From an uncultured Spirochaetia bacterium (GTDB lineage Bacteria > Spirochaetota > Brachyspiria > Brachyspirales > Brachyspiraceae): a stretch of DNA of 42,727 bases. The notes under the pieces are model-generated. The model searched no databases. It worked only from the letters and a program-made list of their open reading frames with translations, and was not told the origin of the DNA. Below are positions 10,659 through 16,291 of the stretch, one piece after another. The position numbers and the translations under genes were made by a program. Numbering within the stretch: position 1 is the first letter of the stretch; every line of letters begins with the position of its first letter. The stretch spans positions 1 to 42,727 of the forward strand of contig CAMRCO010000007.1 of NCBI GenBank assembly GCA_947040945.1, read 5' to 3'.

Positions 10659-10991
10659 GTGAGTATAAATATTGAAGATAATAATGGTATAAAAGTTGTT
10701 AAGTTTGAAGGCAAGCTTGATGTTAGTTTATCAATTTCTATAGAAACTGAATTAGATAAACTTATAAATGATGGTGCTATAAACATGGTTTTTGATCTGT
10801 CTGGTGTCGAGTATTTAAGTTCTAGTGGTCTTAGAATTTTTATAGTATTTATGAGAAGTTTAAAAGAAAAAGGTGGCAAACTAGTTTTGGTTTGTGTTCC
10901 TGATATTGTTACTAGAGTTTTCAAAACAGTTGAACTTAATGATCTTTTTGAAGTTTATAATTCTGTAGAAGAAGGTCTTGCTTCTTTTTAA
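10659..10991 (+). CDS. STAS-domain anti-sigma factor antagonist (SpoIIAA/RsbV-like), GTG start
   Basis: FDLSGVEYLSSSGLRIFIVFMRSLKEKGGKLVL; SD AGGAG. Confidence 0.88.
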   Translation: MSINIEDNNGIKVVKFEGKLDVSLSISIETELDKLINDGAINMVFDLSGVEYLSSSGLRIFIVFMRSLKEKGGKLVLVCVPDIVTRVFKTVELNDLFEVYNSVEEGLASF

Positions 10992-11000
10992 TCAGTAATA

Positions 11001-11720
11001 TTATTTACTTATAACTTTCCCATTTATAAGGCCAAATGATACGCTTCCAAAATTTCTACTATCATATCCATAATCTCTATTGTCGCTTAGTAAGAAGTAT
11101 TCATTGTATCCTATGATATATGGTGCGAAGTTGTCTCTATATGATGATTCTTTATTTAAGATTCTTTTATCTAAATGTACTTTAAGCCATGGCTCATTTA
11201 AAGGTTCTCCATTTATATAAACTGTTTTATCAATTATTTCAATTGATTCATTTGGTAAACCTATAACTCGTTTAACAATATAATTGTTTTCCATTTTATT
11301 AATTCTTCCGAGAGTTAAAAAATACAATGGATATGCAAAAAATTTATTTAAGAAACCTTTTTTTCTAATTTTAGGATCTTTTACTAAAACAATATCACCT
11401 CTTTTTGGTGTTGAAAATACAAATGTTTTTTCTGTAAGCTTAGATATAAATGGATAAATTGTTATAGCATATCTAAGTTTAGATGTAGTTATAAGTTCTT
11501 TTTTTTCAAATGTTTCAAGCATTGTTTCTGAAGGCATTCTATCAAATCTAATAAAGAATGTTATTATACTATATAGTACAAAAGTTATGATTAAAATTAA
11601 GGATATTTTTTTTAATATTACTTTGACAGTCGGATGTATAATAGAAACTATAGAGTAAATAAATAAAAATAAAAAATCTTTTACTTTTTTAAATAATACA
11701 TTCCATTTTATATTACTCAT
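11001..11720 (-). CDS. lepB: Signal peptidase I family protein with Thr at the Ser nucleophile position
   Basis: Box B FDRMPSETMLETF, box C/D YIVKRVIGLPNESIEI, box E LLSDNRDYGYDSRNFGSV, N-terminal TM. Confidence 0.88.
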   Translation of the reverse strand: MSNIKWNVLFKKVKDFLFLFIYSIVSIIHPTVKVILKKISLILIITFVLYSIITFFIRFDRMPSETMLETFEKKELITTSKLRYAITIYPFISKLTEKTFVFSTPKRGDIVLVKDPKIRKKGFLNKFFAYPLYFLTLGRINKMENNYIVKRVIGLPNESIEIIDKTVYINGEPLNEPWLKVHLDKRILNKESSYRDNFAPYIIGYNEYFLLSDNRDYGYDSRNFGSVSFGLINGKVISK

Positions 11721-12043
11721 TAATTAGATTTTGTTTTATGTTCGCTACTTTCAAGAGCAGCAGGAACCGCAGGCACCACAATATAGCCATATTCTCCAAC
11801 TCTAGCAAGATTCATTATAGTCTCATTATCTAAAGTTTCACCAGTCACATCATCTCTTCGTACATCTTCTAATTTTGTTACATGATAAAGTGGTTCCACA
11901 CCATCTACATTTACCTCAAATAGTTTTTCTACAAACTCTAAATCTTTATTTAATCTTTTAATCATTTCTTCTTTCTTATCTTCATCAATTTTTAATTTAG
12001 TTTGGAAAAGAAGTCCATTAAGTTCATTAATATCAGTTTTCAT
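11720..12043 (-). CDS. gatC: Asp-tRNA(Asn)/Glu-tRNA(Gln) amidotransferase subunit C
   Basis: LNGLLFQTKLKIDEDKKEEMIKRLNKDLEFVEKLFEVNVDGVEPLYHV...LRRDDV-type region (LEDVRRDDV); ATG at 12043 after GAGG; 1-nt stop/start overlap with lepB. Confidence 0.82.
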   Translation of the reverse strand: MKTDINELNGLLFQTKLKIDEDKKEEMIKRLNKDLEFVEKLFEVNVDGVEPLYHVTKLEDVRRDDVTGETLDNETIMNLARVGEYGYIVVPAVPAALESSEHKTKSN

Positions 12044-12193
12044 TTTATACCTCAAATCTAAAATATTTTATACCTGTTTGCTATTTTATAATTAAAAGTA
12101 TATTATTTCAAGGGTCTAGGGTTATTGATTTTTTTAGAAATAACACCTTATATTAAATTGAAATAGTTTGTAATATATTTTAAGGTTTTAAAT

Positions 12194-14155: not shown

Positions 14156-16291
14156 TTATTTTTTTACTGAAATTTTAATACCTAAAATATAAAACACATT
14201 AAAGTACCTAGTTTTTTTAATTGAGAATATTCTTTCTTTTAGTGGAATCTTTTGTTTTTTATTACTAGTATTATAACTAAGTAGTTTTTTATAATGTATA
14301 CAAAGTAATTCATAATATAGAGATGGAGTTGTATTATATTTAATATTCATACGTTTTAATTTCTCTTCAAAATTATTTATCAATTCACTTTCGGATACAG
14401 TTGTTATTAAATCTTTTATGTCATACTTACTGTATATTTTGTTATTCTTCATTGCTATACTATACACTTCTTCTAAATAACTTTCTTTAGAGTTTTCATC
14501 GAAGATGTCCCCATTACTAAAAAGCAGTGGCGAGTCATCAATAAAGTATTTGAAATTATTAGCAATTAGATCTAACTTAAACTTATAATCAGATGCAAGT
14601 TTATATGCCAAGTCATAATAACAAGCTATAGAATTATAACAACTTGATTTTATGAAGTATACTTCTTTTGTAGCAATATTATAATTAAAAATAGTGGACT
14701 CTGTTATTTTGCTTGGAATATGCTTTTCTTTTATAATGTAATCATCATCTATTTTTATGATACCTCTGGCTATATAATCAATTTTGTTGTCAACCAATAC
14801 TTCAGAAACACATTCTTCTATAGAGTTTGTAAAATAAAAATCATCACTATTAAGAATAGTAATATAGTCCCCTGAAGCTAGGGGAAGACCTTTGTTTATT
14901 GCGTCATATACCCCTTCATGAGGTTCGCTAATATAATAATCAATATACTCTTCATATTTTTTTATAATGCTTAATGTAGAGTCAGTGCTTCCACCATCAA
15001 TAATGATATATTCAATATTGTCGTATGTTTGGTTAAGAACTGACAAAATAGATCTTTCCAAAAACTTCTCTCCATTGTAGACAGTCATTATAATAGTTAC
15101 AAGTGGTTTATTTTCTGACCCATGTTTATATTTATTTTGGCATCTAAGCCCGCCTTCTGACTTTCTATTATTTGTTAGATCAGGGTATATTATATATTTA
15201 TTTACTATATTGTTAGGAAAAATATTCAGTTTATTTTCAGATATGTTTTTAATAGTTGAATATTCATTATTTTCTTTAAGCTTAAATATATCTATACATT
15301 TTTTAGGATTCTCTTCTAAAACCCGTCTATATAATATTTTTTTTTGATTATCTGTAAAATTATATTTTAATATTACAGAATATACAAAATCAAAAGTATA
15401 CTCACTAAGCCAATTAGCTACAAATTTATATAAACTTTCAAGTTCTTTTATGTTCATATCTTTAAGTCTTTTTGACATAACTTTTACATGTTCTTTATTT
15501 GAAGCATCTAAATTAGAATTACTAGCTCCTCCTAAAGTAAAAGCAACTGTTGAATATCTTATTAATTCATATTTTGGAGACAAATCTATTATCTTAAATA
15601 CTAAGTCTAAATCGCCTGCTATCTTAAACGATGTGTCATAATATCCAATTTTGTTATATATTTTTTTTTCTATAAACATTGTTTGATGACAAGCTGGAAG
15701 TGTCACTAAAAAAGCTACATCATCAAAATTACTTGCTTTTTGTATTCTAATTATATTTTCATGTTCATCTATAATATCAGCATTGGCTGCTATAATATCA
15801 GCATTTGAGGACAAAACCAAATCTACACTGCTTTTTACAGCAAAGTCATAATAAAAGTCATCACTATTAAGAATGGCAATGTAATCCCCTGAGGCTAGGG
15901 TAAGCCCTTTGTTCATCGCATCAAATATACCCTTGTCAGACTCACTAACATAATAATCAATATAGTCTTCATATTTTTCTATAATGCTTAGTGTAGAGTC
16001 AGTACTTCCTCCATCAATAATGATATATTCAATATTGTCGTATGTTTGATTAAGAACAGACAAAATAGCCCTTTCTAAAAATTCTTCCTCATTATAGACC
16101 ACAGTAATAATAGTTACAAGTGGTTTATTTTTTAGACTATGTTTATATTTGTTTTTAGTTCTAAATCCACCTTCAGTTTTTCTATTATCTGTTAAGTCAG
16201 GATATGTTATGTATTTATTTACTATATTCTTAGGAAAAATACTAAGTTTATTTTCAGATATATTTTTAGATGTCGAATAGCATAGATTCAT
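14156..16291 (-). CDS. Bifunctional family-2 glycosyltransferase with two GT2 domains
   Basis: Two copies of PLVTII..VYN.E.FLER.ILSVLNQTYDNIEYIIIDGGSTDSTLSII and LNSDDFY; C-terminal ILGIKISVKK tag. Confidence 0.92.
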   Translation of the reverse strand: MNLCYSTSKNISENKLSIFPKNIVNKYITYPDLTDNRKTEGGFRTKNKYKHSLKNKPLVTIITVVYNEEEFLERAILSVLNQTYDNIEYIIIDGGSTDSTLSIIEKYEDYIDYYVSESDKGIFDAMNKGLTLASGDYIAILNSDDFYYDFAVKSSVDLVLSSNADIIAANADIIDEHENIIRIQKASNFDDVAFLVTLPACHQTMFIEKKIYNKIGYYDTSFKIAGDLDLVFKIIDLSPKYELIRYSTVAFTLGGASNSNLDASNKEHVKVMSKRLKDMNIKELESLYKFVANWLSEYTFDFVYSVILKYNFTDNQKKILYRRVLEENPKKCIDIFKLKENNEYSTIKNISENKLNIFPNNIVNKYIIYPDLTNNRKSEGGLRCQNKYKHGSENKPLVTIIMTVYNGEKFLERSILSVLNQTYDNIEYIIIDGGSTDSTLSIIKKYEEYIDYYISEPHEGVYDAINKGLPLASGDYITILNSDDFYFTNSIEECVSEVLVDNKIDYIARGIIKIDDDYIIKEKHIPSKITESTIFNYNIATKEVYFIKSSCYNSIACYYDLAYKLASDYKFKLDLIANNFKYFIDDSPLLFSNGDIFDENSKESYLEEVYSIAMKNNKIYSKYDIKDLITTVSESELINNFEEKLKRMNIKYNTTPSLYYELLCIHYKKLLSYNTSNKKQKIPLKERIFSIKKTRYFNVFYILGIKISVKK

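What the first reader, a model, noticed from the sequence alone, without database searches (positions are those of the whole stretch)
11515..11535. Signal peptidase I with Thr at the catalytic Ser position
Signal peptidase I box B is normally P-S-x-S-M, with the second Ser as nucleophile. This gene reads M-P-S-E-T-M (ATG CCT TCA GAA ACA ATG on the minus strand), so T66 sits at that position. The Lys-containing box (YIVKRVIGLP) and SDNRD..DSRNFG are intact. It may be a Thr-nucleophile signal peptidase, an enzyme with altered specificity, or a non-catalytic paralogue.
Basis: partly seen in the sequence, partly recalled or inferred. Interest (0 to 1): 0.7.

Follow-up and report, generated by a model that had tools for sequence, protein, structure and literature searches.

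The report
Signal peptidase paralogue with altered nucleophile
This gut spirochaete carries, beside two normal signal peptidases, a third relative in which the cutting serine is threonine; almost all of its Brachyspira relatives share the change and two have alanine there, so the protein is kept by selection but probably no longer cuts, or cuts in an unusual way.

Summary
The 239-aa gene at 11001-11720(-) is a Peptidase_S26 homologue (Pfam E 3.7e-29). Residue T66 (ACA, 11525-11523) aligns with the Ser90 nucleophile of E. coli LepB. The orthologue is present in 29 of 29 Brachyspiraceae genomes: 25 have Thr, 2 have Ser (one in the window's own genus) and 2 sister Brachyspira genomes have Ala. 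Two order-level relatives also have Thr. The base Lys150 (LepB K145) and D220/R222 are retained. Two further active-site positions have changed: LepB Gly272 is Ser212 and Ser278 is Gly218, even where Ser90 is kept. The genome also encodes two canonical SPases. In the two Ala species (one with four extra residues directly after the site) dN/dS is 0.08-0.11, as low as in gatC and in the Thr species. The nucleophile is therefore dispensable there while the protein is not. Parallel second SPases across Spirochaetes have lost Ser and/or Lys (A, G, V, I, E at 90; R, S, A, L, F, C at 145). Best reading: a conserved, largely or wholly non-catalytic SPase-like binding protein that works like SipA/SpsA. 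The rival is an active Thr-Lys dyad in the Thr species.

The parts
11001..11720 (-). SPase I-like gene (239 aa, Peptidase_S26), nucleophile position Thr66
   Evidence: Pfam PF10502 E 3.7e-29, residues 39-236; ORF
11523..11525 (-). Thr66 codon ACA, equivalent of LepB Ser90
   Evidence: sequence; profile alignment to solved SPase I
11529..11531 (-). Ser64 codon, equivalent of LepB Ser88 (oxyanion-hole side); near-invariant in the family
11271..11273 (-). Lys150 codon, equivalent of the general base LepB Lys145; invariant in the orthologues
11085..11087 (-). Ser212 codon at the position of LepB Gly272 (Gly in canonical SPases)
   Evidence: role of Gly272 from PMC4049620
11067..11069 (-). Gly218 codon at the position of LepB Ser278
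11055..11063 (-). Asp220-Ser221-Arg222 (LepB D280/R282), retained
11544..11606 (-). N-terminal transmembrane helix, about residues 39-59, just before box B (a weaker hydrophobic stretch at about 16-36)
   Evidence: Kyte-Doolittle maximum 2.69 at residues 39-57
11720..12055 (-). gatC, directly upstream and overlapping by one base; this order is kept in the Brachyspiraceae orthologues except G028 (L032)

Best explanation
The gene encodes an inner-membrane-anchored SPase I paralogue whose cutting function has been, or is being, lost in the Brachyspira family, while the SPase fold and peptide-binding cleft are kept. Shown: homology, the position of T66, conservation of the gene in all sampled relatives, S/T/A exchange at the nucleophile, loss of Gly272 and Ser278, canonical paralogues in the same genome, and strong purifying selection even where the nucleophile is Ala. 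Inferred: it binds a signal-peptide-like or other extended segment of an exported client at the periplasmic face of the inner membrane and acts as a holding, assembly or regulatory factor, working like SipA/SpsA. Any residual proteolysis by Thr66-Lys150 would be slow and not the selected function.
For: Nucleophile column: T 25, S 2, A 2 of 29 orthologues, Ala in two sister species. In one of them (L031) four residues are inserted directly after the box B Met. The Ala pair has omega 0.084 (domain only) or 0.111 (whole protein), against 0.01-0.11 for Thr-containing Brachyspira pairs, 0.088 for gatC of the same two genomes and 0.180 for their canonical small SPase. Gly272 is Ser and Ser278 is Gly/Ala in all Brachyspiraceae sampled in the wide alignment, including the two with Ser90. 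PMC4049620 states that any side chain at 272 would clash with Lys145 and that Ser278 stabilises it. Among 78 spirochaete S26 proteins, 46 of 47 with Gly272+Ser278 have Ser90+Lys145, against 7 of 31 without (not corrected for relatedness). L082 and L085, which group with this clade in one tree, have Arg145, and L085 also Ala90. The genome has two canonical SPases, L001 and L002, and the relatives checked keep theirs.
Against: Lys150, Asp220 and Arg222 are invariant in the aligned orthologues and Ser64 nearly so, which is unusually tidy for a dead active site. Substitutions at 66 are only S/T/A. Order-level relatives L076/L077 have Thr90 with Lys145 and Gly272 intact, L077 also Ser278. Independent-pairs analysis had too few pairs to test the linkage of the losses. 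No activity data exist.
Confidence: 0.62

Rival explanations
1. A functional Thr-Lys dyad signal peptidase: Thr66 is the nucleophile, Lys150 the base, with narrow or slow substrate use; the two Ala species lost activity secondarily.
For: Thr in 25 of 29 family members and in both order-level relatives; Lys150, Ser64, Asp220 and Arg222 retained; at least three S/T/A changes in the order clade, with S and T interchanging, as expected if both work.
Against: Gly272Ser and Ser278Gly; Pro87 replaced by Lys or Asn in Brachyspira box B; Ala species without detectable relaxation; related second SPases with Arg145; literature searches found no Thr-nucleophile SPase (limited library).
Confidence: 0.27
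2. Another serine (Ser64, LepB Ser88 position) is the nucleophile and T66 is incidental.
For: Ser64 is kept in all but one family member, including the Ala species.
Against: Profile alignment puts T66 on Ser90; Ser64 is Thr in L005; the neighbouring x position is Glu in the window protein and so cannot serve.
Confidence: 0.05
3. Sequencing error or an isolated decaying copy.
For: The one same-genus relative (L005) has Ser.
Against: Thr is shared by 24 other genomes, the ORF is intact, and dN/dS is low.
Confidence: 0.02

Closest known systems
Type I signal peptidase LepB/SPase I (MEROPS S26A, PF10502)
   Same: Fold family, membrane anchor before box B, Lys of box D, DNRD..DSR.FG skeleton
   Different: Nucleophile Ser to Thr (Ala in relatives), Gly272 to Ser, Ser278 to Gly
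SipA of Streptococcus pyogenes (PMC4049620)
   Same: SPase I-like protein, retained gene, altered nucleophile and altered 272/278 positions
   Different: SipA has Asp/Gly in place of Ser/Lys and lies in a pilus locus; here Lys is retained, the substitution is Thr/Ala and the neighbour is gatC
SpsA of Staphylococcus aureus (described as inactive in PMC12445088)
   Same: Second SPase homologue lacking conserved catalytic residues beside a canonical essential one
   Different: SpsA lacks two catalytic residues; here the base Lys is kept
Second SPase of Treponema-like and other spirochaetes, often in tandem with canonical lepB (found here)
   Same: Paralogue beside canonical SPase, drifting 90/145/272/278 positions, D280/R282 mostly kept
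   Different: A separate branch of the tree, in tandem with lepB rather than next to gatC; often loses Lys too

Membership tests
Type I signal peptidase (S26A), as a homologous family | Significant match to Peptidase_S26 profile | tested here: met
   E 3.7e-29, 102 bits against cut-off 22.9
Type I signal peptidase (S26A), as an active enzyme | Ser nucleophile in box B (LepB Ser90) | tested here: not met
   Thr66; T 25, S 2, A 2 in 29 orthologues
Type I signal peptidase (S26A), as an active enzyme | General base Lys (LepB Lys145) | tested here: met
   Lys150, invariant
Type I signal peptidase (S26A), as an active enzyme | Gly272 and Ser278 of box E | tested here: not met
   Ser212 and Gly218
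Type I signal peptidase (S26A), as an active enzyme | Asp280/Arg282 and a membrane anchor before box B | tested here: met
   Asp220, Arg222; hydrophobic segment 39-57
Type I signal peptidase (S26A), as an active enzyme | Cleaves signal peptides | not testable with these tools
   needs an assay
Catalytically deficient SPase-like proteins (SipA/SpsA type) | SPase fold family with catalytic dyad lost | tested here: inconclusive
   Nucleophile Ser lost, Lys kept; both lost only in more distant relatives such as L085
Catalytically deficient SPase-like proteins (SipA/SpsA type) | Retained by selection although the nucleophile is absent | tested here: met
   Ala pair omega 0.08-0.11, similar to gatC and to Thr pairs; two genomes only
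SipA proper | Located in a sortase/pilin cluster | tested here: not met
   Neighbours are gatC and a STAS-like ORF

The most novel reading that the evidence does not exclude
In Thr-bearing Brachyspirales, Thr66-Lys150 is a working Thr-Lys dyad: a signal peptidase with a threonine nucleophile that has interchanged with serine during evolution, with an adapted active site (Ser212, Gly218) and its own substrate set.
Probability: 0.27. Interest if true: 0.75.

Novelty: new variant of a known kind. Interest (0 to 1): 0.45.

Why it matters
If non-catalytic, the gene shows that SPase-like binding proteins, known from SipA and SpsA in Gram-positive bacteria, also exist in the two-membrane spirochaetes and arose there more than once. 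Annotations that call all of these 'signal peptidase I' would then be misleading, for instance when choosing drug targets. If catalytic, it would be a Ser/Lys-type peptidase that uses threonine. The natural S, T and A versions of one orthologue make the question directly testable.

Tried and rejected
AlphaFold2 with the 12 permitted orthologues gave a poor model (mean pLDDT 49), so no structure comparison was run and no geometry is claimed. A scan of viral contigs for relatives found none. An NCBIfam scan failed on a coordinate error and was not repeated. Papers: no S90T hit and no paper on this protein apparent in the titles and abstracts of the four Brachyspira hits (not read). Direction of the S/T changes: by my own count on the tree, Ser or Thr as the ancestral state needs equally many changes, so 'Thr derived from Ser' in the window lineage is not claimed. 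Sequencing error and alternative Ser nucleophile were considered and rejected as described.

Full report
The observation. The ORF at 11001-11720 on the minus strand encodes 239 aa starting MSNIKWNVLF. Box B reads R-M-P-S-E-T-M; T66 is codon ACA at 11525-11523. The protein matches Peptidase_S26 with E 3.7e-29 over residues 39-236. A profile of 14 orthologues matches solved SPases at E down to 1.3e-14, and its alignment to E. coli LepB pairs the T66 column with the Ser of PSGSM. In LepB numbering S64=Ser88, T66=Ser90, K150=Lys145, S212=Gly272, G218=Ser278, D220=Asp280, R222=Arg282.

Its own genome. The genome (2.17 Mb, 130 contigs, 98.7% complete) has three S26 genes. The 357-aa L001 (IPTGSM, KRV, GDNRDQSCDSR) and the 169-aa L002 (TNNSM, KRV, GDN...SRDSR) keep Ser90, Lys145, Gly272 and Ser278. 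Secretion therefore need not depend on the Thr protein being an enzyme.

Its relatives. An orthologue is found in 29 of 29 family genomes, counting the window's own. Several of them coincide in position with named Brachyspira records, for example B. alvinipulli, B. hampsonii and B. pilosicoli. Position 66 is Thr in 25 (ACT, ACA, ACG), Ser in two (L005, the only other member of the window's genus, and L032, another genus) and Ala (GCC) in two sister Brachyspira genomes (L029, L031). Thr is thus the prevailing family state and not an error. Two genomes of the same order but another family (L076, L077) also have Thr, with Lys145 and Gly272 intact. At least three changes among S, T and A are needed within the order. 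By my own count Ser-ancestral and Thr-ancestral histories cost the same, so I do not polarise them. The gene follows gatC throughout the Brachyspiraceae sampled, except in L032.

Evidence on activity. Lys150, Asp220 and Arg222 are invariant and Ser64 nearly so, which argues for a retained active-site architecture. Against activity: Gly272 is Ser and Ser278 is Gly or Ala in every Brachyspiraceae member of the wide alignment, including those with Ser90. PMC4049620 describes Gly272 as invariant because a side chain there would clash with Lys145, and Ser278 as stabilising the Lys. PMC12984324 describes the tripeptide Gly272-Asn274 as coordinating the Ser90 nucleophile. In the Ala species the nucleophile is absent, and L031 has four extra residues just after box B, yet omega between the two is 0.084 over the domain and 0.111 over the whole protein. 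For comparison, omega is 0.01-0.11 among Thr-containing Brachyspira pairs, 0.088 for gatC of the same two genomes and 0.180 for their canonical small SPase. A protein that needed residue 66 as nucleophile should show relaxation after its loss; none is visible, although two genomes are a small sample and the loss could be recent.

The wider pattern. Fetching 40 further spirochaete loci, and S26 genes from 8 further genomes, shows that second SPases with a drifting dyad are common in the phylum. Examples: T90 R145 (L110), A90 R145 (L101), G90 F145 (L104), I90 R145 (L090), V90 L145 (L151), E90 with S or A145 in two roughly 1-Mb genomes that I take to be Borreliaceae (L147, L149), and A90 C145 (L153). 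Many sit in tandem with a canonical lepB. In the tree most of them form one large clade apart from the Brachyspirales clade (98/99 and 98/94 supports), so the erosion probably happened more than once; the placement of the longest branches is unsure. L082 and L085 (Arg145; L085 also Ala90) group next to the Brachyspirales in one tree (96/97) and less firmly in the other. Across 78 proteins, changes at 272/278 and at 90/145 go together: 46 both canonical, 24 both changed, 7 with 272/278 changed only, 1 with 90/145 changed only. The plain Fisher p of 7e-13 is not corrected for relatedness, and the independent-pairs test had too few pairs to be informative. That 272/278-only cases outnumber the reverse suggests that change around the Lys comes first and change of the nucleophile follows.

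Conclusion. The most economical reading is a conserved membrane-anchored SPase-like protein that keeps its fold and cleft and no longer depends on proteolysis, working like SipA and SpsA (0.62). A Thr-Lys signal peptidase remains possible in the Thr-bearing species (0.27). What it binds is unknown; an exported client's signal-peptide-like segment is an inference from the retained SPase architecture. As a member of S26 by descent it qualifies. As an active SPase I it fails two tested features (Ser90; Gly272/Ser278). As a SipA-type protein it is functionally similar but not the same lineage or locus. I found no prior description of these substitutions in the searched open-access library, which misses most subscription papers.

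Noticed in passing
window 14156-16291 (-): A 711-aa protein with two tandem glycosyltransferase-2-like halves, 56% identical over 267 aa, whose DNA is 84% identical over about 430 bp: a recent internal duplication or gene conversion.
   Followed up: partly
L031 (G001), box B of the orthologue: Four residues (SNST) are inserted directly after the Ala-Met of box B, where the other orthologues have none.
   Followed up: partly
L090, L091, L099, L102, L105-L107, L109, L145, L147, L149, L151: Tandem or adjacent pairs of a canonical lepB and a divergent second SPase with altered 90/145/272/278 positions in Treponema-like, probable Borreliaceae and other spirochaetes; likely annotated as signal peptidase I.
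   Followed up: partly
L102 and L106 (second SPase): Thr at the nucleophile position with Lys145 kept and Ser272/Thr278, an apparently parallel occurrence of the Thr state outside Brachyspirales.
   Followed up: no
window 10659-10991 (+): A 110-aa STAS/anti-sigma-factor-antagonist-like ORF converges on the SPase-like gene, ending about 10 bases from its stop codon.
   Followed up: no
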